Positions 4,026-40,860 of a stretch of 64,000 nt of DNA are shown in pieces; the stretch's first letter is position 1; every line of letters begins with the position of its first letter. The notes under the pieces are model-generated. The model searched no databases and was not told the origin of the DNA. It was given only the letters and a program-made list of their open reading frames with translations. Origin of the DNA: Arthrobacter sp. U41 (GTDB lineage: Bacteria; Actinomycetota; Actinomycetes; Actinomycetales; Micrococcaceae); the NCBI RefSeq assembly GCF_001750145.1, contig NZ_CP015732.1:1674001-1738000 (forward strand), in the 5' to 3' direction. The position numbers and the translations under genes are program-made.

Positions 4026-5140
4026 CACAGGCATTGGTCCTGAGACATCTGTCCAAGTCGTTCAGGAAATCCCCCGTCCCGGCACTGGATGACGTCAGTT
4101 TTACCCTGGACGCCGGTTCCTGCACCGCAGTAGTGGGCCCCTCCGCCTCCGGTAAAAGTACGCTCCTGCGGACGGTCGCAGGCCTGGAAGTCCCGGACGA
4201 AGGCAACGTTCTGCTCGACAGCCACGATCTGGCCGCTGTCCGCCCCGAACACCGCCGGATGGCGATGGTCTTTCAGCGACCGCTGATTTTCCCGCACCTG
4301 AATGTCCTCGACAACGTAGCCTTCGCCTCCACGATCCGCGGTGTTCGGCAAAAGCGGGCCCGTGAGGACGCGGAGGCCTTCCTGGAAATGGTCCAGATGG
4401 GAGGAACCGGGAGGCGCGCGGTGACAGAGCTCTCCGGCGGGCAACAGCAGCGGGTGGCCATCGCCCGCGGACTGGCCGCCCGGCCGGCGGTACTGCTGCT
4501 GGATGAACCGTTCAGCGCCCTGGACCCCGAACTCCGCTCAGCCATGCACGAACTGCTGGCAGACGTTCGGGAGAAGCTGAACCCGACCATCCTGATGGTC
4601 ACGCACGACCATGACGAAGCCGCGGCCGTGGCCGATAACCTGGCCCTGCTCAGCGGCGGCAGGCTGCTCCAGCACAGTTCTGTTGAAGCGATGTACACCC
4701 GGCCCGCATCACTTCAGGTCAGCCGCCTGATGGGAGGAACCAACGAAATCCCCGGGACGGTACGCGAGGGCGTGCATTACTCCGCCCTGGGCGCCCACCC
4801 ACTGCCCGGGAGCCACCAATGGCCCGAAGGACCCGCCACGCTGCTCATCCGGCAGGAACGCATCGTCCTCCTTGAGGAACACAGCCCGGGCATGCCAGCG
4901 GTGGTAACCGGGATCCGCACCCGCGGGCCCCGGCGGCTGGTCACCCTGGAGGCCGCCGGCGTGAACCTGTACGCGGAAGCCACCGCCGGCCCTGCCCTCG
5001 CCACCGGGGATACCGTCCGTATCCAGCTCCCGACTCCCGCATTGGCGGCAGTCGGAGGCGCTGCAGAACACCCAAGCGCGGGCCTTGACTTCCCCCGACT
5101 GGAAGGTTTTAGCGTGACAGTATCAGCAACCAAAAACTGA
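4022..5140 (+). CDS. ABC transporter ATP-binding protein
   Basis: ATPase subunit of the importer, 372 aa. All nucleotide-binding motifs are visible: Walker A GPSASGKST (residues 39-47), Q-loop FQRPLIFPH, signature LSGGQQQR, Walker B LLLDEP and switch VTHDHDE. The C-terminal 130 residues look like the OB-type (TOBE) regulatory domain of the PotA/FbpC/CysA group, with RTRGPRRLVTLEAAGVNLYA. The open frame extends upstream to 3830, but homology begins at ATG 4022, which overlaps the permease stop. Cytoplasmic. Confidence 0.88.
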   Translation: MTQALVLRHLSKSFRKSPVPALDDVSFTLDAGSCTAVVGPSASGKSTLLRTVAGLEVPDEGNVLLDSHDLAAVRPEHRRMAMVFQRPLIFPHLNVLDNVAFASTIRGVRQKRAREDAEAFLEMVQMGGTGRRAVTELSGGQQQRVAIARGLAARPAVLLLDEPFSALDPELRSAMHELLADVREKLNPTILMVTHDHDEAAAVADNLALLSGGRLLQHSSVEAMYTRPASLQVSRLMGGTNEIPGTVREGVHYSALGAHPLPGSHQWPEGPATLLIRQERIVLLEEHSPGMPAVVTGIRTRGPRRLVTLEAAGVNLYAEATAGPALATGDTVRIQLPTPALAAVGGAAEHPSAGLDFPRLEGFSVTVSATKN

Positions 5141-5156
5141 AGGAAAGGAGCTGGCC

Positions 5157-5303
5157 ATGGCGCTGCAACAAGGAGAGGTCTACCGCTGCCCGGATCAGGC
5201 ATGCGGGTGCGAAATCACTGTCACCAAGGGCGCAGCCCCCGGTCACGGCGGAGACAGCGACCCTAAGTGCTGCTGCGGGCACAGTATGGAAAAAGTGAAC
5301 TGA
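5157..5303 (+). CDS. 48-aa Cys-rich protein, putative metal-binding
   Basis: A short gene preceded by AAGGAAAGGAG (spacing 5 nt to ATG). The product has a CPDQACGC cluster near the N-terminus and a CCCGHSM cluster near the C-terminus: six Cys and two His in 48 residues, separated by a Gly/Lys-rich linker. This spacing suggests one zinc-ribbon or rubredoxin-like metal site. It lies 16 nt after the ATPase gene and just before a strong stem-loop, so it probably ends that operon. The role is unknown: metallochaperone or small metal sensor are guesses. The coding prediction rests on the ribosome-binding site, position and Cys pattern. Confidence 0.6.
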   Translation: MALQQGEVYRCPDQACGCEITVTKGAAPGHGGDSDPKCCCGHSMEKVN

Positions 5304-5306
5304 CCC

Positions 5307-5347
5307 GGCGTCTGCCGCAACCGGGCGCCCCGGTTGCGGCAGACGCC
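5307..5347 (+). terminator. Strong stem-loop terminator after the ABC operon
   Basis: Perfect 18-bp inverted repeat (arms 5307-5324 and 5330-5347) with a 5-nt loop. The left arm begins 4 nt after the stop of the 48-aa gene. There is no T-tract, as is common for actinobacterial terminators. Confidence 0.8.
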
Positions 5348-5463
5348 ATCGGACGCTGTTCCAAGCCGGGGCCCTTATGTGTCCGGGTTCACAGAGCGGG
5401 GAGGGACCACGGGCCTATCTTTCGAAGGTAAGCAGTTCCGTTTCAACGAAAGGCAGCAAAACG

Positions 5464-5925
5464 ATGTCCGCTACATCTCCGGTGGCACACCAGCCACACG
5501 CCTTCACTCGTCACCTTGCCCGGCGCATCACCGCCGGGGTCACCGGCGGTATTGCCGGCGGCCTCGTTTTCGGCGTCCTGATGGCCATGATGGGCATGCT
5601 GCCCATGATCGCCTCGATGGTCGGATCGGATTCGGCCCTGGTGGGCTTCGGGATCCACCTCGTAATCTCCATCCTGATCGGCTGGGGCCTGACCGTTCCC
5701 TTCTCCGGACTCCTGACCTCCTACGGCCGGGCCGCGCTGATCGGCCTGGCCTACGGGGCACTCTGGTGGGTACTCGGTCCCCTGCTCATCATGCCCACGA
5801 TGCTCGGCATGCCCCTGTTCATGGTCGACGCGACGGCAGGATTTTCCCTGATGGGCCACCTGATCTATGGGGTCATCCTGGCTCCCGTGGCCTTCCGCAT
5901 CCTGAAGTCCGCACATGGACGATAA
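5464..5925 (+). CDS. Integral membrane protein of unknown function
   Basis: 153 aa with about four hydrophobic segments, the first rich in Gly and Met (GVTGGIAGGLVFGVLMAMMG). ATG 5464 follows GAAAGG by 9 nt; the longer open frame to 5377 lacks a ribosome-binding site. No family recognised. It overlaps the following Crp/Fnr regulator gene by 11 nt, so the two are probably co-transcribed and perhaps functionally linked. Confidence 0.65.
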   Translation: MSATSPVAHQPHAFTRHLARRITAGVTGGIAGGLVFGVLMAMMGMLPMIASMVGSDSALVGFGIHLVISILIGWGLTVPFSGLLTSYGRAALIGLAYGALWWVLGPLLIMPTMLGMPLFMVDATAGFSLMGHLIYGVILAPVAFRILKSAHGR

Positions 5926-6703
5926 CTGGGAAAAAGGGCTGGAAGCCGCCGTCGGCGGCCTCCAGCCCTGGTCTCCGGGCCAACGCGAACCGTATCCGCT
6001 CACGGCAGGCCCGGAGGACCCCTTCACCTGCCTGAATGAGGTGGACCTCTTCGCTGATCTGTCCGCTGAAGAGATGCACGCGATGGACATGATGGCCCCG
6101 GCGCGGATGTTCCGCCGCGGAGAGCTCGTCTTTAGCCAGTCCCAGCCCGTCACCGCGCTCTTTATCCTCAAGTCGGGCCGTATACGGGTCTTCCGCGTCG
6201 CCGAGGACGGTAAAGCCCTCACGATGGCCATCCTGGAACCGGGAGCCGTCTTCGGGGAAATGATGCTGGTCGGCCAGCGCATGTACGACAACTATGCCGA
6301 AGCTATCGAGGACTCCGCCATTTGCCGGCTGGGCGTCGAGGACGTTGAAAGGTACCTGATCTCTGACCCCCGCATCGCGATCCGGATCTCCCGGCTCCTG
6401 GGGGAGCAGGTGGCCCGACTGGAGGAACGCCTCACGGACCTGGCCTTGCGTCCGCTGGCTGCCCGGGCCGCGTCCATTCTGATCAGCCTCGATGCCGCGG
6501 CGCCCAGTGGCCGGTTCGGGCAGAGCCGGGCCATCCGGCTCACCCACGAACAGATCGCCGGACTTCTCGGCGCAACCCGGGAAGCCACCAGCAAGGCACT
6601 GGCAGACTTTGCAGCCCAGGGAATCATCCGCCAGGGCCGCGGCCGCATCACCATCCAGAACCCGGCAGCCCTGCGTTCGGCGGCAGTAAGCAGCAGCCCG
6701 TGA
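5915..6703 (+). CDS. Crp/Fnr-family transcriptional regulator
   Basis: 262 aa. An N-terminal extension of about 40 residues precedes a cyclic-nucleotide-binding-type beta barrel (about 45-160, with FRRGELVFSQSQ and GAVFGEMMLVGQ), a dimerisation helix (ARLEERLTDLALRPLAARA) and a C-terminal winged helix-turn-helix (LTHEQIAGLLGATREATSKA). There is no N-terminal Cys cluster of the FNR iron-sulfur type, so it is not obviously an oxygen sensor of that class. It begins inside the preceding membrane-protein gene. Target genes are unknown; the neighbouring redox genes are candidates. Confidence 0.85.
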   Translation: MDDNWEKGLEAAVGGLQPWSPGQREPYPLTAGPEDPFTCLNEVDLFADLSAEEMHAMDMMAPARMFRRGELVFSQSQPVTALFILKSGRIRVFRVAEDGKALTMAILEPGAVFGEMMLVGQRMYDNYAEAIEDSAICRLGVEDVERYLISDPRIAIRISRLLGEQVARLEERLTDLALRPLAARAASILISLDAAAPSGRFGQSRAIRLTHEQIAGLLGATREATSKALADFAAQGIIRQGRGRITIQNPAALRSAAVSSSP

Positions 6704-24527: not shown

Positions 24528-25946
24528 ATGCCCGTGGAAGAACAAGTACTGCCGCCGCGTCCGCTGCGGCTTCATCCGGTACACGACGAAGGCGCGAAGT
24601 CGTTGGCGCGCCTATATCCGGCCATAGCCGCCCAGTGGGATCCGGACAGGAACTCCATTACGCCGTCCCAGCTCACGTCGGGAAGCAACCGCCCGATCTG
24701 GTGGCTGTGCAACAACCAACACTCCTGGCATGCGACCCCTTACGCGCGAACCAAAGGCCACGGTTGCCCGGCGTGCGCTGGCCTGAGAGCCACCCCAGAA
24801 AACAATCTGGCCGTGGCGAGGCCGGACCTGCTCTCCACGTGGCATCCGGAGCGCAACCGGGCCGAGCTCGGATTGTTGCCCACCGATGTGCTGCCCCAGT
24901 CCAACAAGAAGTTTTGGTGGACGTGCCCCCAAGATCCCACCCACGACTATCAAGCCTCCCCGGCGGCCCGTTTCCGCGGCCGGGGGTGCCCGTACTGCGC
25001 GGGTAAAAAGGTCAATGCTTCAAACAGCCTCGCAGGTGCGAGCCTGATCTTGGCCGCCGAATGGGATCCGGCCAACGACAAGCGCGCCGAAGAAGTCGCC
25101 AGAGGAAGTGATTACCGGGCCGGCTGGATATGCCGGAATGATCCGGACCATCAGTGGGAATCCTTCGTCAGTTCACGGCCAGCAGACGGGGCGGGATGCC
25201 CCTACTGCGACGGGAAGCGGCCCACTGACCGCAATCGTCTGTCCCTGAACAGGCCGGACCTTGCTGACCAATGGCACCCGGCCAAGAACAGTCCCCTGAC
25301 TCCGGCCGACGTGACGACCGGAAGCAACCGTCGGGTCTGGTGGAACTGCCCCCAGGATCCTGCGCACGTGTGGCGTACAGCAGTTCGGGCGCGCGCCCTC
25401 GACGACGACGGTTGCAAACAGTGCGCCCCCGCCATCAGGTCCAGGATCGACATCGCATTGGCGTGTGAGTTCGCGGCCGTGTTTCCCGACGACGTGGACC
25501 CCAAGAGTCAGAAGCGCCTCGAGCTCGGTCATAACCGGCCCCACACCGTCGACATCCTCATCGAGTCCCTACGTATTGTTATCGAGTTCGATGGTTCACA
25601 TACACACAAGGGCGACGACCACGAACAGCGCGACCGACAAAAGACAAAACGGCTCCGCGATGCCGGTTACAGGGTTGTGCGGATCAGGGAAGAACCTTTG
25701 CCCTTGTTGGATCTAAAATTCGACGTGAGCATTGAGCGCACGCGCAGGCCCGACGTCAAGGCGATCACGGACAAGGTCCTGCGGCACGTCACCGAGTTGG
25801 GCTGGGTCAGTCAGGAAGTCACCCGGGATTACCTCGCCTCCGCCGAACCGAAGGCAACGGTGCTGGCCGCTGAAATATACGATTCCCTTCCGCCATCCGA
25901 GCGATTTGTTCCATACAGCGCCCGGAAAGTCCGGAATCGAACATGA
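24528..25946 (+). CDS. Four-zinc-ribbon protein fused to a Vsr/DUF559-like nuclease domain
   Basis: 472 aa. Residues 30-300 hold four related units, each with Trp-rich start, Cys near the middle, His four to eight residues on, and a closing Cys-x2-Cys (CPAC 80-83, CPYC 154-157, CPYC 224-227, CKQC 296-299). Each unit is preceded by a W-x-P-x-x-N type element, as in the DUF4379 zinc-ribbon family. Residues about 303-400 look like a PD-(D/E)xK nuclease of the Vsr/DUF559 sort: HTVDILIESLRIVIEFDGSH (D342, E353) then a helix and YRVVRIRE. ATG 24528 has GAAGGA upstream. It may cleave DNA recognised by the ribbons. Defence or mobile-element functions are inference. Confidence 0.8.
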   Translation: MPVEEQVLPPRPLRLHPVHDEGAKSLARLYPAIAAQWDPDRNSITPSQLTSGSNRPIWWLCNNQHSWHATPYARTKGHGCPACAGLRATPENNLAVARPDLLSTWHPERNRAELGLLPTDVLPQSNKKFWWTCPQDPTHDYQASPAARFRGRGCPYCAGKKVNASNSLAGASLILAAEWDPANDKRAEEVARGSDYRAGWICRNDPDHQWESFVSSRPADGAGCPYCDGKRPTDRNRLSLNRPDLADQWHPAKNSPLTPADVTTGSNRRVWWNCPQDPAHVWRTAVRARALDDDGCKQCAPAIRSRIDIALACEFAAVFPDDVDPKSQKRLELGHNRPHTVDILIESLRIVIEFDGSHTHKGDDHEQRDRQKTKRLRDAGYRVVRIREEPLPLLDLKFDVSIERTRRPDVKAITDKVLRHVTELGWVSQEVTRDYLASAEPKATVLAAEIYDSLPPSERFVPYSARKVRNRT

Positions 25947-28679: not shown

Positions 28680-28991
28680 CTAATTGCCCATGGGTCGCCG
28701 ACGGCCCCGGTAAGGGGAAGTCTTGGCAGCCGAATCCGGCGGGAGAAGAAGTTGGCTGATCGGTACGTCCAGAACGTCAGCGATATCCCAAAGACGCTCG
28801 TAGGCTACGCTCTTCCGGCCCCACTCGATGCCGATCACCATATTTCTGCTCAGCCCCGACTCCAGAGCCAGTGCTTCCTGCGAGAGGCCCTGCCCGAGTC
28901 GTAGCTCACGGATTCGCGCCCCGACCATTGCCCTGCGTTCAGCCCACCGGCGTGTCTGCTCCTCGGAGGACTGGTGCGGGCGGGTGGGCAT
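28680..28991 (-). CDS. XRE-family transcriptional regulator
   Basis: 103 aa with a Cro/CI-type helix-turn-helix at about 25-80: IRELRLGQGLSQEALALESG then SRNMVIGIEWGRKSVAYERL and a closing helix. No sensor domain. It is divergent from the intein-like gene, whose ATG is 88 nt away, and may repress it. Its function as regulator of a mobile element gene is inference. Confidence 0.83.
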   Translation of the reverse strand: MPTRPHQSSEEQTRRWAERRAMVGARIRELRLGQGLSQEALALESGLSRNMVIGIEWGRKSVAYERLWDIADVLDVPISQLLLPPDSAAKTSPYRGRRRPMGN

Positions 28992-29079
28992 TCATCCATG
29001 TCAACCGAGATTGTCAGTCTTGTCTGCTCCACTAGCTGTACATGAAAAAGTGGGGCAGGCGAGAGGAGACGTGAAGTCG

Positions 29080-30252
29080 ATGTATTTGGAAGCTAGCGGT
29101 ACTTCGGATTTATCGGAGAATGGCGGCTCGGACGGGCAAGCGTCAACCACGGTGGACATCGCGAAAACGACAACGGTGGGTGTTCCCGGCCGCGGCCTTT
29201 GCGTCCCGGTCTCGGCAGTTCCCGAATGGCCCGCAGTGGCGCTGACACATCGAGTTGCCACGCCTTCCGGCTGGAAATCGGTCGCCGATCTGATAGTAGG
29301 CGACACTGTCTTCGACGGAGACGGCAACTGGCAAAGGGTGGACAGGGACACTTCAGTATTCCGGAATCTCGACTGCTACTCGGTGACTTTCGATGACGGT
29401 CAGCAGATCACGGCCGCAGCCTCGCACACGTGGACTGTCGAGACCCGCAATGGTCACGACAGTGGCTTTGTCGAACTAACGGTTTCCACCACAGAGCTGG
29501 CACGCATGAAGCTATTCCGCAGGTCCGCAATTAGCGTTCCGGTCGCCGAACGGCTGAGTCCCGATCTTGATCTCCCGGTCGATCCATACCTTTTTGGCTA
29601 CTGGCTCGGCGATGGCTACTCCGCAAACGGCGCCATCTCTGTGGGGCGGAATGACGTAGAAGAAGTGACCACCCTACTTCAGGACGTTCTGCTTTCCTAC
29701 GAGATGTTGTCCTCGACCTACTACGACTACAACCTGGCCCACTGCCTCAACGTCCGGAACGTGACGAAGCCGTCTCGCGGCGCGGTGAACCAGTCGCTCT
29801 TTCAGCGGCTGCGGACCTTGGGGGTGCTGCGCAACAAGCATGTTCCGGATGTGTACCTCTTTGCTGGGACTGAGCAACGCCGCGCACTCTTGCAGGGCTT
29901 GGTCGACTCAGACGGCAATGTGACAAACAGGAAGGGGCAGGTCCAGTTCGTTAACACGAACCGGCGGATTCTCGACGGTTTCGTGGAAATAGCCCGATCG
30001 TTGGGCTATAAGCCCAGTGTGCGCGCCCATCCGACGGCGGGCTGGCTGGCAGTGTTCCAGGTTGCTGACGACTATCCGGTCGCCCGGATCCAGCGCAAAG
30101 CGTCACGCCTTGTCCCCGGCGGCCGCATGGCCTCACGCCGCTACATCCGGTCTGTGCTGCCAGTAAGGTCGGTTCACCTTAAGGGCATCGGCATCGATAC
30201 CGATGCCCACCAGTTCCAGGTTGAGGGTGGAATTCTCGCACACTGCCTGTAG
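29080..30252 (+). CDS. Orphan intein-like protein with LAGLIDADG-type endonuclease domain
   Basis: 390 aa. Intein block A/N2-like TPSGWKSVADLIVGDTVFDG (61-80), block B-like DGQQITAAASHTWTV (with H116), endonuclease blocks YLFGYWLGDGYSA (170-182) and ALLQGLVDSDGNV (269-281) with their acidic residues, and a block F/G-like C-terminus (IGIDTDAHQFQVEGGILAH). The splice ends are degenerate. There is no obvious block A nucleophile: it begins ALTHRVATP, as in Ala-type inteins. The C-terminus reads HCL-stop instead of His-Asn plus extein. No host-protein exteins are recognisable, so it may be a free-standing homing endonuclease or a fossil. AGGAG lies 11 nt before ATG 29080; GTG 29071 is possible. 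Confidence 0.8.
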   Translation: MYLEASGTSDLSENGGSDGQASTTVDIAKTTTVGVPGRGLCVPVSAVPEWPAVALTHRVATPSGWKSVADLIVGDTVFDGDGNWQRVDRDTSVFRNLDCYSVTFDDGQQITAAASHTWTVETRNGHDSGFVELTVSTTELARMKLFRRSAISVPVAERLSPDLDLPVDPYLFGYWLGDGYSANGAISVGRNDVEEVTTLLQDVLLSYEMLSSTYYDYNLAHCLNVRNVTKPSRGAVNQSLFQRLRTLGVLRNKHVPDVYLFAGTEQRRALLQGLVDSDGNVTNRKGQVQFVNTNRRILDGFVEIARSLGYKPSVRAHPTAGWLAVFQVADDYPVARIQRKASRLVPGGRMASRRYIRSVLPVRSVHLKGIGIDTDAHQFQVEGGILAHCL

Positions 30253-34663: not shown

Positions 34664-34889
34664 CTAGTGCCGGCCTTCATGAGCGGACATGAAAGCGGCC
34701 AAGGCTTCGACTGAGTAGCGCACGAGGCCCCCCGCCTTTGATGTACCGGGGGCCACTCTTGGTGTTGTTTGCGAGCCAGCGCGGGGGCACATTCAGGTAG
34801 GCCGCCGCTTCGGTGCGGGTGAGGTAGATCGAGCGCGTATCTTCTAGCCCTTTAGTCCCGGGCGGAGGCCCTGATTGCGCATTTGCCAT
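34664..34889 (-). pseudogene. xis: Excisionase/AlpA-type HTH protein, frameshifted
   Basis: ATG 34889 (AAGGG upstream) starts a typical excisionase: IYLTRTEAAAYLNVPPRWLA and NNTKSGPRYIKGGG. Here a run of six C on the plus strand (34728-34733) shifts the frame: as written it continues PRALLSRSLGRF and stops at 34677. With one base less, the frame continues GLVRYSVEALAAFMSAHEGR, the normal end of this family, stopping at 34664. Either the gene is inactivated or the base count is wrong. It would direct excision together with the integrase. Confidence 0.82.
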
Positions 34890-34924
34890 GACATCCCTTC
34901 ATAGTTCGACTCTTGTGTTCAGAC

Positions 34925-34953
34925 TTGACTACTTTGAACAACGAAACTAAAGT
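34925..34953 (+). promoter_or_regulatory. Candidate promoter for the rightward genes of the element
   Basis: TTGACT (34925-34930), exactly 17 nt, TAAAGT (34948-34953). The leader is short and several AAAGTT motifs lie nearby, possible operator elements. Confidence 0.6.
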
Positions 34954-34960
34954 TAGCGGC

Positions 34961-35851
34961 ATGGATTCAAAGTTGTCAACCATGAACCAGAGGACTTCGA
35001 CTGTGAACGATTACAGTGAAGATATGAAGTCCGAAGATGCCAGCCCCATCCTCAGAAAGCTCACTGAAGAAGTTGCTCTCGAGTATCAGCACCCGCAGGC
35101 CGCGCCGCGAGAGCGCTTATATGAAGACTTCGCCCTTCTTATCCGCCGCCCTAGAGACGGATGGGCCGTAGGGCTTAGGGTCGACTTCACAACCGAGTCG
35201 TGGTCGATCGCCGAAGTCGTAGCATTCCCGGCCGGACAGGTGCAGTCCCTTCCGCAGGTAGACACCGAGGACGTGCATTCCTACGTTGAAGAATCGGTGA
35301 ACCGGGCGCGAGGAAGACGGCGGGTAGCTGAGAAACAGCTTGCTAAACTCGCCACCAACACTGCCTTCATCGAGCAGCGGTTTGAAACATGGCGGGACAA
35401 GGCAGCTCCGCGAACCAATGTCGAGTACGCAGCCCTTGCGGCAAAGTACGCCGAGCAAATTCGGCTGGGAAACAGCCGCGCGACGGCAACGCTCGCGGAA
35501 TTAGTGGACATGTCGCCCTCGGTTATGGCTCAGCGAATCAAAGAAGCAAGACGCCGGGCCCTTCTGACGCCTGGTGAACAGGGTCGCGCCTCTGGTGCAC
35601 TCACGCCGCTTGGAGTTCTGTACACGGATCCCCAATTCCCGGGGATGCGCAGCCTGCGGTTGGCCGGTATGACCCAGCGCGGAATCGCAGATAAGTACGG
35701 GATTGAAGAGCGCTTGGTGTGGGCCGCTTTAATGGGTGAGGGCTATTCCGATGGAGAGGGTCTAATACTTTCGGCCGATGTCTTGCCGTCTAAGCAAGGG
35801 ATTCCACTGACCGCAGAAGACATAATGCGCAATATCCACCGGACACGATGA
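34961..35851 (+). CDS. Hypothetical protein of the integrative element
   Basis: 296 aa, hydrophilic. A helix-turn-helix-like stretch lies in the second half (ATATLAELVDMSPSVMAQRI and KEARRRALLT), and another repeated helical part follows (RGIADKYGIEERLVWAALMG). It could be a regulator. No family recognised. It is 4 nt upstream of the integrase gene and likely co-transcribed. I chose ATG 34961 just after the candidate promoter; ATGs at 34982 and 35024 are possible. Confidence 0.6.
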   Translation: MDSKLSTMNQRTSTVNDYSEDMKSEDASPILRKLTEEVALEYQHPQAAPRERLYEDFALLIRRPRDGWAVGLRVDFTTESWSIAEVVAFPAGQVQSLPQVDTEDVHSYVEESVNRARGRRRVAEKQLAKLATNTAFIEQRFETWRDKAAPRTNVEYAALAAKYAEQIRLGNSRATATLAELVDMSPSVMAQRIKEARRRALLTPGEQGRASGALTPLGVLYTDPQFPGMRSLRLAGMTQRGIADKYGIEERLVWAALMGEGYSDGEGLILSADVLPSKQGIPLTAEDIMRNIHRTR

Positions 35852-35854
35852 GCT

Positions 35855-37352
35855 ATGGGCATCCGGAAATTGGACTGGGCTGTTTCGTACTCGTCGGCCT
35901 CTGGGAAACGGCTCCGGAACGAATACGACACTGAATCCAGGGCTAGGGCATTCGCGACACGCCAAACAGTTCGGGCATCTGAACTCGGTCTAGAGCGTCC
36001 AAGCGTCTCGCGGCTGAAACCTCGACGGTGGGAGGCTGGGTATCAGGACCCTGAGGGAAAATGGAAGACGCGGCGGTTCGAAAGCAAAGCCGAAGCCACT
36101 GAATTCGCCATGGGCCAGACCAAGTCGGTAAGGGCCGGTACGTATATCGACCCCAAATCAGCGGCCGGGATGACCGTAGCGGCCTTGTACGAACTGTGGA
36201 TCGATCGAATCAAGTCAGTGGGTGCATCTGGCAGGCGCGCTGCCACGCCCAAGACAATACAGGGCTATGAGTGGTTATATGCCCGATTGATAAAGCCCTA
36301 CTGGCAGGACTACCCCCTGAGCACTGTGACTTACGCCGGCGTCGCCCGGTGGACACAGAACATGAAAGGCGTGGCCGGCTCTACCGCGAGCAGCGACACG
36401 AGAGCCAGGGCCTCCAAGCAATTGTCGAGAATGCTTGATCATGCCGTCGGTCTAAAAGTCCTAGGTGTGAATCCGGCCAAGGATTCTGCGGGGGGGACGT
36501 GACTACGTCCCGCACATGACCGCCGGCCGTGAATCCGTCTATCTCACCCGTCCCCAGCTTGAGCGGCTCGCTGCATGTTCCGATCGATATGAACTCCTTG
36601 TAAGGTTCACCGGACTCACTGGGCTTAGATGGGGGGAAGTTACGGCTCTGGTTGTCGGAGATCTCGATCTCGGTCCCCGGCCGTACGTGTCCGTGTCCAA
36701 GGCCTATTCCGAGGTGAACGGTCGGCTGCTCTTGGGCGAAACCAAGGGCCACGCGGCCCGTGACGTGCCCCTGCCAGCTTCCCTTGTCGAGGATCTTTTA
36801 CTGCTGGTGCGGGGGAAGACTGCCGAGGCTTTGCTATTCCCGTCCTCTCAAGGCCTGCCGATGCGCAACTCCAACTTCACAAGGCGGTACTACGAACCAG
36901 CCAGACAGTTGGCGTCGACTAGCGTCGGCCGCGTGCAGGCCGCCCTGGGTATAACTGAGACGCGGCGAGGGCTGGCAGTATTCGGCGACGTTACTTTGGC
37001 CGCGCTGACCGGCTTCCAATATGACCTGGAAATGCCAAACGCCGGTGCCATTGGCGAGGAAACCTGGCGGGCGCTTGCCTCCGAAGCCAGCGTTTCAGAT
37101 GAGCAGCGTGCTTGGCTGCTTCGGTCGGGCGGCATCACGCTGGTATACGGGGACATGGATTTCCGGCCGCCGGTGTTCCATGATCTGAGGCACACCGCCG
37201 TCAGCCTGTACCTGTCCGTGACCAAGAACGTCAAGCATGTGCAGCGCATCGCCGGCCACAAGGACGGTACGACGACCATCAATACCTACGGCGCTCTATT
37301 CGATGACGACTTTTTCAAGGCTGCGGCGGGACTCGATTCGCTAGCCAAATGA
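35855..37352 (+). pseudogene. int: Tyrosine recombinase (integrase), frameshifted, with a peptidoglycan-binding-like insertion
   Basis: Two open frames (35855-36502 and from before 36516 to 37352) join into one integrase if one base is removed or added in the G7 run at 36490-36496. The first part is the arm and core-binding SAM-like region (TPKTIQGYEWLYARLIKPYW). The second holds the catalytic residues: Arg (TGLRWGE), beta-hairpin Lys (GETKGHAARDVPL), HxxR (FHDLRHTAV), His (AGHKDG) and Tyr (INTYGAL). Between the Arg and HxxR boxes about 75 extra residues are inserted, of which 36921-37088 resemble a PG_binding_1 domain. As written no full integrase is made. The tRNA-derived attachment site lies 80 nt downstream. 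Confidence 0.88.
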
Positions 37353-37432: not shown

Positions 37433-37486
37433 AGCGTTCGACTGAAAATCGAAAGGTCACCGGATCGACGCCGGTCGGAGCCACCA
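37433..37486 (+). other. Attachment site: 3' fragment of tRNA-Phe(GAA)
   Basis: 54 nt fold as the 3' part of a tRNA: anticodon arm TTCGA-CTGAAAA-TCGAA with anticodon GAA at 37444-37446, variable loop AGGTC, T arm ACCGG-ATCGACG-CCGGT, acceptor strand CGGAGCC, discriminator A and encoded CCA. The 5' part (acceptor GGCTCCG, D arm) is absent upstream. Such fragments are left when an element integrates into a tRNA 3' end, so this is the outer att site on the integrase side. T-loop position 54 is A rather than T. Confidence 0.85.
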
Positions 37487-37489
37487 GCT

Positions 37490-37536
37490 AAAACCCCGCA
37501 GTTCCTCGTGTTTACACGGGAACGGCGGGGTTTTTT
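37490..37536 (+). terminator. Intrinsic terminator after the tRNA fragment
   Basis: 10-bp outer stem AAAACCCCGC (37490-37499) with GCGGGGTTTT (37525-37534), a further inner stem GTTCC/GGAAC and CGTG/CACG, followed by TT. Probably the original terminator of the tRNA-Phe gene. Confidence 0.85.
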
Positions 37537-38395: not shown

Positions 38396-40282
38396 TCAGG
38401 GTCGGCGCAGGAACTCCCGCACGGCATCAATGTACTCCGCGGTGTGTGTTGCCATCACCCCGTGGCCTGCGTCCGCGAAAAGACGGATTTCTGCCGCGGG
38501 ATAGAGGGCGCGGAGGGCCGCACGTGCCTGGGGCGGGAACGCCTGGTCGTGCTCCGACTCGATCAGCAGCACCGGTGCCGGCGGCGCCGGGGGCGTGCCT
38601 ACACCCGGCGCTTCGGCACCGGGCAGACGGGAAAATTCCTGCATCTCCCGCAGGGCGGACAGCAGATCCTCCTTGCCCAGCTGGCTGAGGATGTCCGACA
38701 GCAGCATGTTCCAGAAAGCCGCGTCCTCCTGCGTGCCGGTTGCAAACCAGCGGCGCCAGTTCCAGCCGGTCAGATAACGCACAGCGCCTTCCGGAAGAAC
38801 GGCGAGGAAGCTGATCAGGAACGGGAGCAAGGGGAGCGGGGCTGCGGCAGGGCTTCCGGTGTTCGCGAGCACGAGGCGCCGCACACGTTCGGGATGGCGC
38901 CGGGCGAAGGTCTGGGCCACAAATCCGCCGAAGGAGGAACCCAGCATGTCAGCCTGCTTGACTCCCTCGGCGTCGAGGATCGCCGCCAGGCCGTCCGCGA
39001 GCCCGGCGATGCCGGCGCCGGCCGGGTAGGCCGGCGCCAGGACGCGGAAGTCCCGTTCCAGCGCTTCGATCAGCAGCAGGTACAGGTCCGGCATCCTGGT
39101 CCCCCCGGAGGGCAGCAGCACCGTCTGCTCACCCGAGCCGCCGGCAAGGTAGCGCCAGCGCACGCCGGCGACGTCGAGCGTCCTGTACGGGTGGCCGGCA
39201 CGGAACCCGGCAAGCCTGGCGTCCAGCGCCGCGGGCGGCACGGTCTCCGGTTCAGCCCGGCGGAGTTCGGATGCCGGACGGTGCGGCGCGGCGGCGGGGC
39301 TTCCGCTGCGTCCCGCGGAAAGGGAACGGCCTTCGAGGAAGCGTCCGACGACGTCGGCGTATTCGGCCGGGTGGGTGACGGCCGCCCAGTGGCCGCCCTG
39401 GCCAAACACGTGCGCGCGGGCGCCGGGATACGTGGCCAGCAGGGCCTCGCGTTCGCGCGACGTAAAGCCGCGGTCGTCGGAAGCGGCGATCACCAGCACC
39501 TCCTCCGGGCGTTCGAAGGTCAACGCCGCGGCGTAACGGTCCGGATATGCCGCCAGATCCAGCAGCACCGCCAGGCGCGCCAGGGCCGATTCCTTGGTGT
39601 GTGCTGCGAAAAGGTCCTCCGCGTAGGCGGTGAGGAAAGCACGCTCGGCGGCTTCTGCCCCCGAGGCAAGGCGCGCGAGCCTCGGACGGTAGAAAGCGGC
39701 AAGGGCGGTCTTGGGCAGCATCGAGAAAACACGGACGAAGGCGCCCACCAGGCGCGTATGGCCCGGGGTGTAGAGACCGAAACCGGAGAGGATGAGCTTG
39801 TCCACCCGCTGCGGATAACGGCGTGCAAAGGCGTGCGCGACGCCGGCGCCGAGGGAATGCCCGAAAACACTCGCCGACTCGATGCCCTCGGCGTCGAGGA
39901 CAGCCGCGACCCCTGCCAGGATTTCGGCCATGGTCCGCACCGGGGGATAAGAGGGGGAGACAACGCGGAAACGGGGTTCGAAAGCGGTGATCGTGCGGAA
40001 TGCGGAATCGCCGAAGGAGAAGCCGCCGCCCAGGACGAGAAGCGCCGGTCTGGCTTCCCCGGGCCCCGGGGGTACCTCCGCAGCAGGGTGCGCGGCGCTT
40101 TCCGCATCTGCCGGGGCGCGGGGCGCGGCGGGCCCCGCGATGTACCTCCATTCGACGCCGCCGACCGTCAGTGAACGGTACGGGTGGGTGGCGCGGAACG
40201 CCCTGAGCTCGGCATAGCCGTCTATGGATCCTCCCGCCGGATGGCCTGACACTGGGGAGACTACGCCGTTCCTTCCGGCCAT
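38396..40282 (-). CDS. Tandem-duplicated alpha/beta hydrolase
   Basis: About 628 aa made of two alpha/beta hydrolase domains (about 25-320 and 355-627). Each begins with the same element, FRATHPYRSLTVGGVEWRYI and FRAGHPYRTLDVAGVRWRYL, so the gene arose by internal duplication and fusion. Nucleophiles are Ser in GHSLGAG (S143) and GSSFGGF (S450); late His in GGHWAAVTHP and GHGVMATH. Both copies keep their catalytic residues. Substrate unknown. ATG 40282 is chosen; no clear ribosome-binding site, and the frame is open to 40462. Confidence 0.82.
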   Translation of the reverse strand: MAGRNGVVSPVSGHPAGGSIDGYAELRAFRATHPYRSLTVGGVEWRYIAGPAAPRAPADAESAAHPAAEVPPGPGEARPALLVLGGGFSFGDSAFRTITAFEPRFRVVSPSYPPVRTMAEILAGVAAVLDAEGIESASVFGHSLGAGVAHAFARRYPQRVDKLILSGFGLYTPGHTRLVGAFVRVFSMLPKTALAAFYRPRLARLASGAEAAERAFLTAYAEDLFAAHTKESALARLAVLLDLAAYPDRYAAALTFERPEEVLVIAASDDRGFTSREREALLATYPGARAHVFGQGGHWAAVTHPAEYADVVGRFLEGRSLSAGRSGSPAAAPHRPASELRRAEPETVPPAALDARLAGFRAGHPYRTLDVAGVRWRYLAGGSGEQTVLLPSGGTRMPDLYLLLIEALERDFRVLAPAYPAGAGIAGLADGLAAILDAEGVKQADMLGSSFGGFVAQTFARRHPERVRRLVLANTGSPAAAPLPLLPFLISFLAVLPEGAVRYLTGWNWRRWFATGTQEDAAFWNMLLSDILSQLGKEDLLSALREMQEFSRLPGAEAPGVGTPPAPPAPVLLIESEHDQAFPPQARAALRALYPAAEIRLFADAGHGVMATHTAEYIDAVREFLRRP

Positions 40283-40401
40283 GGCAATCGGTTCATTTGA
40301 GCAGGTCCGGCTAGACTCGCACGCTGGGGAAAGAACGCCAAGGCCGCCGGCAGCCTGATCGGGCCGGCGGTGCAATCTCAACCGAAAAGTGATTCCTAAA
40401 C

Positions 40402-40860
40402 GTGATCTTGAAGAATGTTGCACGCCCGCTGACCATTTGCACCCTCCTGGCCACCCTTGCACTCACCGCCTGCTCGGCGCCGGACGCCGGCAGTGCGCCG
40501 TCGTCCAGTCCCGCAACGTCTGCCGCAACGTCTGCCGCGGCGGCGAGCCCCAGCAAGTCCTCCGGGCTCTGGGGTGACTTCCCCACGGCGGCGGAAGCCT
40601 GCGCCGAGATCTCCGAGCAGGCCACGGGCTCCACGCTTCTGCCGCTCACGGCCGCACAAAGCACGGCGGCCGAACTGGAGCAGGCCAAGGCGGAGCTGAA
40701 CCGCGCCGCGGAACGCGCCCCCGAGAGCATCAAGGCCGACTTCACTGCCCTGAGCCAGACGGCCATCGCCGGCATCAAAGACCAGACCGTCTTCTCCAGC
40801 GGGAAACTCCAGGACGCGATGACCCCGGTGCAGGGCTGGCTCGCCGCCAACTGCACGTAG
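40402..40860 (+). CDS. Small lipoprotein
   Basis: 152 aa from GTG 40402. Lipobox LTAC (C24), a Ser/Ala/Thr linker to about 55, then a helical domain (AAELEQAKAELNRAAERAPE, FTALSQTAIAGIKDQ). No family recognised. Lipid-anchored outside the membrane. Confidence 0.75.
   Translation: MILKNVARPLTICTLLATLALTACSAPDAGSAPSSSPATSAATSAAAASPSKSSGLWGDFPTAAEACAEISEQATGSTLLPLTAAQSTAAELEQAKAELNRAAERAPESIKADFTALSQTAIAGIKDQTVFSSGKLQDAMTPVQGWLAANCT

What the first reader, a model, noticed from the sequence alone, without database searches (positions are those of the whole stretch)
36921..37088. Peptidoglycan-binding-like domain inserted inside a tyrosine recombinase catalytic domain
Between the Arg box (TGLRWGE) and the HxxR box (FHDLRHT) about 75 extra residues occur. 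They contain VGRVQAALGI, FGDVTLAALTGFQ and GAIGEETWRALA, the pattern of PG_binding_1 (PF01471). Those domains normally sit in secreted cell-wall enzymes, so the place is unexpected. It may be a captured domain that changes specificity or oligomer contacts, or a fold reused for DNA or protein binding.
Basis: partly seen in the sequence, partly recalled or inferred. Interest (0 to 1): 0.75.

Follow-up and report, generated by a model that had tools for sequence, protein, structure and literature searches.

The report
Cell-wall-type domain inside a DNA integrase
A DNA-integrating enzyme of an Arthrobacter-like bacterium carries, inside its catalytic part, a small domain of the kind normally found in cell-wall proteins; related integrases of other actinobacteria carry the same insert at the same place, so it is a real, kept and apparently repurposed part, though what it does is not yet known.

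Summary
The C-terminal integrase ORF (36516-37352 +) has the tyrosine-recombinase catalytic residues plus about 76 extra residues just before the HxxR box, holding a PG_binding_1-like domain (about 36918-37079). The window copy is below Pfam's cut-off (14.5 vs 23 bits); 7 of 8 diverse relatives pass it. A profile of the inserts matches 12 PDB sequences, all cell-wall or peptidoglycan proteins by name. AlphaFold2 models the insert with high confidence. Of 230 relatives listed by two searches, 85 have the insert by spacing, 133 lack it, 12 are unclear. The insert domains may have one source and co-diverged with the integrase, but presence is patchy on the integrase tree. They keep the fold's core residues but lack two aspartates typical of ordinary PG_binding_1 domains, and are not basic. 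Best reading: a captured cell-wall fold reused as an intracellular contact domain of tRNA-targeting integrases; the function is inferred, not shown. The window's own integrase is frame-broken; intact relatives exist. The paper searches made here showed no description of this architecture.

The parts
35855..36502 (+). N-terminal half of the integrase (arm/core-binding part), ends at a frame break
   Evidence: no Pfam hit; by eye collinear with the first 215 or so residues of the intact 498-aa relative P0006
36516..37352 (+). C-terminal half of the integrase: tyrosine-recombinase catalytic domain with the insert (278 aa from first ATG)
36618..36638 (+). Arg I box TGLRWGE
   Evidence: invariant R38
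36744..36746 (+). catalytic Lys of the beta-hairpin (K77)
   Evidence: invariant in the 29 rows of A2 and the 46 rows of A3
36918..37079 (+). inserted PG_binding_1-like domain (residues about 135-188); its first helix follows the recombinase helix 118-134 after one residue
   Evidence: family evidence
37080..37148 (+). post-domain helix and linker back to the catalytic domain (residues about 189-211)
   Evidence: helix 195-206 in the model; dN/dS 0.23 and 0.48
37176..37196 (+). HxxR box FHDLRHT
37257..37289 (+). second catalytic His (H248) to nucleophile Tyr (Y258)
   Evidence: invariant columns
37433..37505 (+). attachment-site copy: 3' part of tRNA-Phe plus flank; 73-bp exact copy of the block at the intact tRNA-Phe 64.6 kb away in the same contig
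34677..34889 (-). excisionase-like HTH ORF, divergent; C-terminus out of frame compared with relative in L055
   Evidence: relative: HTH_17 E 1.9e-5, 25.3 bits, below its cut-off of 27; phrog_66 excisionase E 0.0016; frames
34913..35851 (+). upstream gene ending 3 bases before the integrase start (same arrangement in L054, L055); DNA-binding-like, function unknown
   Evidence: weak PHROGs HTH match of the L055 copy, E 7.4e-5; no Pfam hit

Best explanation
This is the integrase at one end of a 64.6-kb island flanked by tRNA-Phe and a copy of its 3' part. It belongs to actinobacterial tyrosine recombinases with a PG_binding_1-type domain spliced between the helix that follows the beta-hairpin region and the HxxR helix. 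Supported by computation: the domain is real, sits at one site in the aligned members, is consistent with a single source, has co-diverged with the enzyme, leaves the catalytic residues in place, and is under purifying selection in the window's group (two gene pairs). Inferred: the domain came from a cell-wall protein and lost its cell-wall role; joined by a near-continuous helix, it now works in the cytoplasm as a protein-contact module, most likely between recombinase protomers or with an accessory factor, steering synapse assembly or direction rather than reading DNA.
For: 85 of 230 listed relatives have the long spacing; in the 40 thinned representatives aligned, the insert lies at the same site. 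7 of 8 diverse members pass Pfam's PG_binding_1 cut-off. The insert profile matches 12 PDB sequences, all cell-wall or peptidoglycan proteins by name, best 4.7e-6. Model: recombinase helix 118-134, domain helix 136-144. Insert domains as one clade: AU p 0.66, not rejected. The 27/13 split of insert-bearers on the integrase tree recurs in the insert tree at SH-aLRT 91. dN/dS of the domain 0.085 and 0.120 vs core 0.089 and 0.046. Net charge mean -1.9 vs +15.4 for the rest of the same 40 proteins. Two aspartates present in 36 of 40 ordinary PG_binding_1 domains are D in 1 and 0 of 40 inserts. Different tRNAs as neighbours, and insert-less siblings also at a tRNA.
Against: No partner, oligomer contact or activity was tested, and the fold of the insert was not searched alone. 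In the Isoptericola-like genomes the domain evolves faster than the core (median dN/dS 0.57 vs 0.25), which a tight interface would not predict. Patchy presence (at least 4-5 changes on the integrase tree) shows the domain is dispensable over evolution. The window copy itself is frame-broken, so it may not act at all.
Confidence: 0.53

Rival explanations
1. The domain is a DNA-contacting module that extends core-site or arm-site recognition near the helix preceding HxxR.
For: It follows the helix 118-134, whose counterpart in Cre-like enzymes lies near DNA (recalled, not computed); one insert group has a longer loop with Arg/Lys before the (F/Y)G turn (by eye).
Against: Inserts are neutral to acidic on average (mean -1.9, range -7 to +4, 40 members); they go with different tRNA neighbours, and insert-less siblings also sit at a tRNA.
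Confidence: 0.2
2. The domain is a tolerated passenger: a small self-folding unit inserted in a permissive loop, with no selected role.
For: Insert-less siblings exist and the presence is patchy; the linker and, in one genus, the domain evolve faster than the core.
Against: Low dN/dS of the domain in the window's group (0.085, 0.120; two pairs); presence in two deep integrase clades with co-divergence of insert and core.
Confidence: 0.19
3. The domain still binds peptidoglycan or a precursor and makes recombination respond to cell-wall state.
For: The profile and core signature are kept.
Against: The enzyme needs DNA, and its N-terminus shows no hydrophobic export stretch (by eye only); the two aspartates common in ordinary PG_binding_1 domains are lost, though their role in ligand binding was not tested.
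Confidence: 0.06
4. Artefact: chance resemblance, misassembly or misread frame.
For: The window copy scores below Pfam's cut-off and its gene is frame-broken.
Against: The same insert occurs in uninterrupted proteins and open frames from many records and genomes.
Confidence: 0.02

Closest known systems
Tyrosine recombinases / phage-type integrases (Pfam PF00589)
   Same: Catalytic fold and residues, tRNA 3'-end attachment site, excisionase-like neighbour
   Different: About 76 extra residues forming a second domain just before HxxR; absent by spacing from 133 of 218 classified relatives
PG_binding_1 (PF01471) domains of cell-wall proteins, e.g. in 5nm7, 1lbu, 6tci
   Same: Profile match of the insert family and shared core residues
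   Different: Inside a DNA enzyme; two aspartates of the DG motifs lost; peptidoglycan binding untested
Insertions listed for tyrosine recombinase subgroups (beta-stranded insertion in the catalytic domain of IntTn916 and IntBPP-1; helix insertion between core-binding and catalytic domain in the TnpA group; PMC8138268, passages read)
   Same: Extra element added to a recombinase and shared by a lineage; [quoted passage not shown]
   Different: Those are short elements at other places; here a whole domain of a known cell-wall family. 'peptidoglycan' occurs 0 times in that paper's main text
Insert-less Arthrobacter-type integrases of 381 aa (P0040, P0047)
   Same: 50-51% identity over 47-49% of the query; two genus relatives of P0047 (82% and 76% identity) lie next to a tRNA 3' part
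   Different: No insert: spacing 110 instead of 186

Membership tests
Tyrosine recombinase / Phage_integrase (PF00589) | Profile match over the curated cut-off | tested here: met
   43.9 bits vs 27.1
Tyrosine recombinase / Phage_integrase (PF00589) | Catalytic R-K-H-R-H and Tyr | tested here: met
   R38, K77, H222, R225, H248, Y258 are all invariant columns of A2; their roles are recalled from the family
Tyrosine recombinase / Phage_integrase (PF00589) | Catalytic fold | tested here: met
Tyrosine recombinase / Phage_integrase (PF00589) | One uninterrupted reading frame | tested here: not met
   The window copy is split in two frames; intact relatives exist. I file it as a broken copy of such a gene
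PG_binding_1 (PF01471) | Profile match over the curated cut-off, window copy | tested here: not met
   14.5 bits (ORF), 17.1 (segment) vs 23
PG_binding_1 (PF01471) | Profile match over the curated cut-off, insert family | tested here: met
   7 of 8 diverse members (P0175 with 21.9 bits misses); in the closer set A1, 30 of 44 match at E up to 0.05
PG_binding_1 (PF01471) | Three-helix PGBD fold | tested here: inconclusive
   Helices 136-144, 158-170, 181-188 at high pLDDT, but the insert was never searched against PDB folds alone
PG_binding_1 (PF01471) | Aspartates of the two DG motifs, common in ordinary members | tested here: not met
   D in 1 and 0 of 40 inserts vs 36 and 36 of 40 ordinary domains
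PG_binding_1 (PF01471) | Binds peptidoglycan | not testable with these tools
   needs a pull-down with sacculi
PG_binding_1 (PF01471) | Exported (signal peptide) | not tested
   no predictor was run; by eye the N-terminus is charged, without a hydrophobic stretch

The most novel reading that the evidence does not exclude
A site-specific recombinase lineage that uses a captured peptidoglycan-binding fold as a cytoplasmic sensor of cell-wall precursors or of a division-associated partner, so that integration or excision of mobile islands is tied to the state of the cell wall; in Isoptericola-like bacteria this enzyme has been domesticated beside a KfrA-type DNA-binding protein.
Probability: 0.06. 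Interest if true: 0.92.

Novelty: new variant of a known kind. Interest (0 to 1): 0.62.

Why it matters
Tyrosine recombinases are usually described as a core-binding plus a catalytic domain, with an optional arm-binding domain (as in PMC8138268, passages). Here a whole cell-wall-type domain sits inside the catalytic fold of related enzymes that neighbour different tRNA genes. That shows the fold tolerates domain insertion next to the HxxR helix and gives a natural system for asking what controls synapsis and direction. Matched insert-bearing and insert-less enzymes make the domain's role directly testable. It also explains database names such as 'putative peptidoglycan binding protein' for an integrase (P0181).

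Tried and rejected
Chance match or misassembly: rejected, many relatives. Insert sets the tRNA target: not favoured. Basic DNA-binding module: not favoured on charge. Repeated captures from unrelated cell-wall proteins: not favoured, because the insert domains can be one clade (AU p 0.66; only 56 columns, weak). Integrase cores of insert-bearers as one clade: rejected (p 3.6e-10), so gains, losses or swaps occurred; which of these I cannot say, because the insert-less relatives were only those that our queries found.

Phage integrases with the insert: none seen, judged from match spans in the rows shown (15, 8 and 8 of 479, 250 and 358 records); some rows end before the insert's place and cannot tell. 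Viral contigs gave nothing, but with patterns from the window's own sequence only. A partner gene next to every insert-bearer: by eye the upstream ORF is shared only by window, L054 and L055 among the 8 loci. The 50 VIA-align rows shown are recombinase- or topoisomerase-like folds, which does not exclude a PGBD match.

Papers: searches listed no account of this architecture (1, 0, 12, 0, 2, 25 of 165, 1 and 0 papers listed); passages only of PMC8138268, PMC3414803, PMC3218068 and PMC3581485 were read.

Rows dropped: of 30 further PG_binding_1 loci, five empty, short or wrong-strand rows were left out; one more (L090, wrong strand) was left out of the counts but was still in the tree and AU test. 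12 of 230 proteins could not be classified. The ordinary PG_binding_1 domains were taken to come from cell-wall proteins and not checked one by one. Scripts 39, 82 and 95 ended with an error, and script 63 read loci of the minus strand the wrong way (redone); only printed, valid results are used.

Full report

The insert. Between 'NSNFTRRYYEPARQLA' and 'GDMDFRPPVFHDLRHT' lie about 76 residues that insert-less relatives lack. The spacing from Arg box to HxxR is 164-197 in 81 proteins and 101-122 in 133; the final classification, by spacing of at least 150, was 85, 133 and 12 unclassified of the 230 proteins listed. These two calls listed 120 each of 354 and 2405 hits. The window copy matches Pfam PG_binding_1 only weakly (14.5 bits, cut-off 23). 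Diverse members match well: 7 of 8 are above the cut-off, best 43.8 bits, and PHROGs endolysin families match the insert of the Actinomyces oris member P0135. A profile of 20 inserts with flanks (A4) finds 12 PDB sequences at E up to 0.01, all cell-wall or peptidoglycan proteins by name, best 4.7e-6. In the model the recombinase helix 118-134 is followed after one residue by the domain's first helix 136-144; helices 158-170, 181-188 and an extra one at 195-206 follow. The ten-residue blocks from 131 to 220 average pLDDT 90-97.

Where it occurs. A4 found full-length inserts in 3 of 198 genomes of the genus (a fourth hit, G140, covers only the HxxR end), a match in 14 of 396 genomes of the order, the window's own included (6 of 109 genera; that of G473 covers only part of the profile), and in 1 of 396 of the phylum, the window's own. 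Only 12 or 24 first-look candidates per genome were scored, so counts may be low. Named carriers among the proteins include Arthrobacter, Pseudarthrobacter, Paenarthrobacter, Glutamicibacter, Actinomyces oris and Isoptericola. The window's genome has no PG_binding_1 match at E 1e-4 or better, its own insert included.

Attachment sites. Members abut the 3' part of tRNA-Phe (window, L054, L055, and a remnant in L005), a tRNA with anticodon CAT read by eye (L047, L052), tRNA-Ser (L050) and tRNA-Arg (L062). Two insert-less siblings also abut a tRNA 3' part, read by eye as Thr (ARAGORN, which wants whole genes, finds none). So the insert neither fixes the tRNA nor is needed for a place beside a tRNA.

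A domesticated branch. Six genomes of one genus (g21; probably Isoptericola, inferred from the near-identity of one insert to that of P0150) matched A4, and all six were fetched. In 6 of 6 the recombinase sits beside a KfrA_N protein (E 1.6e-9 for the L048 copy) and homologues of the L048 ald and lrp genes; galE was within the stretch in 5 of 6, and no tRNA was found. The six were chosen because they carry the insert, so this says nothing about how many g21 genomes lack it. The names ald, lrp and galE are mine from sequence, not tested by profile. The shared place suggests vertical inheritance.

History. On a tree of 88 integrases with the insert columns removed (40 with, 48 without; thinned from the classified proteins of at least 360 aa), the trait needs 5 changes, at least 4 forced by starred branches (quick method). 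One clade of insert-bearers is rejected (AU p 3.6e-10). The 40 insert domains separate from 16 ordinary PG_binding_1 domains of eight carrier genomes at SH-aLRT 87. With 25 more ordinary domains (one of them misread, see Tried and rejected) the free tree needs 3 changes, 2 forced, which speaks against one clade; but the tree holding the inserts together has the higher likelihood (AU p 0.66). The insert tree recovers the 27/13 split of insert-bearers seen on the integrase tree and 4 of 6 subgroups (supports 61-91; distance correlation 0.33, 0 of 2000 permutations as high). Simplest reading: one old capture, co-divergence, then losses; an early swap between lineages is not excluded.

Selection and chemistry. 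dN/dS (Nei-Gojobori, my script) of window vs L055: core 0.089, domain 0.085, linker 0.478; vs L054: 0.046, 0.120, 0.230, with dS over 1 there. In the g21 genes the medians over 15 pairs are 0.248, 0.570 and 0.469, so constraint on the domain is weaker there. Net charge of the insert averages -1.9 (range -7 to +4) against +15.4 for the rest of the same 40 proteins. Core positions are shared with ordinary domains. But the aspartate before the FG turn is D in 1 of 40 inserts vs 36 of 40 ordinary domains, and the aspartate of the second DG in 0 of 40 (T in 26) vs 36 of 40 (3 T, 1 S). The ordinary set was taken mostly from the best Pfam hits, so it is biased towards consensus.

Mechanism. The facts point to a fold kept for structure, with some typical cell-wall residues changed, placed beside the catalytic helices, and not attractive to DNA by charge. 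I take a protein-contact role (neighbouring protomer or accessory factor) as most likely, about one chance in two. The DNA-contact, passenger and cell-wall-sensor readings follow. None was tested directly. On checking the draft I lowered this reading from 0.55 to 0.53 and raised 'passenger' from 0.17 to 0.19, because the six g21 copies had been counted as retention although they were picked for having the insert.

State of this copy. The integrase is frame-broken, and so is the excisionase-like ORF compared with its relative in L055; a plasmid copy in Arthrobacter sp. StoSoilB13 is also interrupted. Decay and sequencing error cannot be told apart here. Intact relatives of about 498 aa exist.

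Literature. Eight searches listed no paper on this architecture; one search listed 25 of 165. I read passages only of PMC8138268, PMC3414803, PMC3218068 and PMC3581485. The library holds open-licence papers only.

Noticed in passing
L048, L057-L061 (six genomes of genus g21): Insert-bearing tyrosine recombinase at one chromosomal locus beside a KfrA_N protein: a possible domesticated recombinase with a DNA-binding neighbour.
   Followed up: partly
34677-34889 (-): Excisionase-like ORF whose C-terminus is out of frame compared with its relative in L055; with the broken integrase this suggests an immobile island or sequence errors.
   Followed up: partly
34913-35851 (+): Gene of about 298 aa in relatives, function unknown, directly upstream of the integrase in three Arthrobacter islands (window, L054, L055).
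   Followed up: partly
genome C1 1662149-1662736 (+), outside the window but inside the island: A second Phage_integrase match (369-aa open frame) lies between the tRNA-Phe and the window, so the island may be composite.
   Followed up: no
28828-30252 (+): Protein with a LAGLIDADG homing-endonuclease domain inside the island.
   Followed up: no
24528-25946 (+): Protein with four DUF4379 treble-clef stretches and a DUF559-like end.
   Followed up: no
L051 (genus g97), recombinase open frame 5132-6685 (-): Insert domain enlarged by a further internal extension (518-aa open frame); the Pfam match covers only the second half.
   Followed up: no
38396-40462 (-): One long ORF that reads by eye like two alpha/beta-hydrolase copies in tandem, just outside the island.
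   Followed up: no
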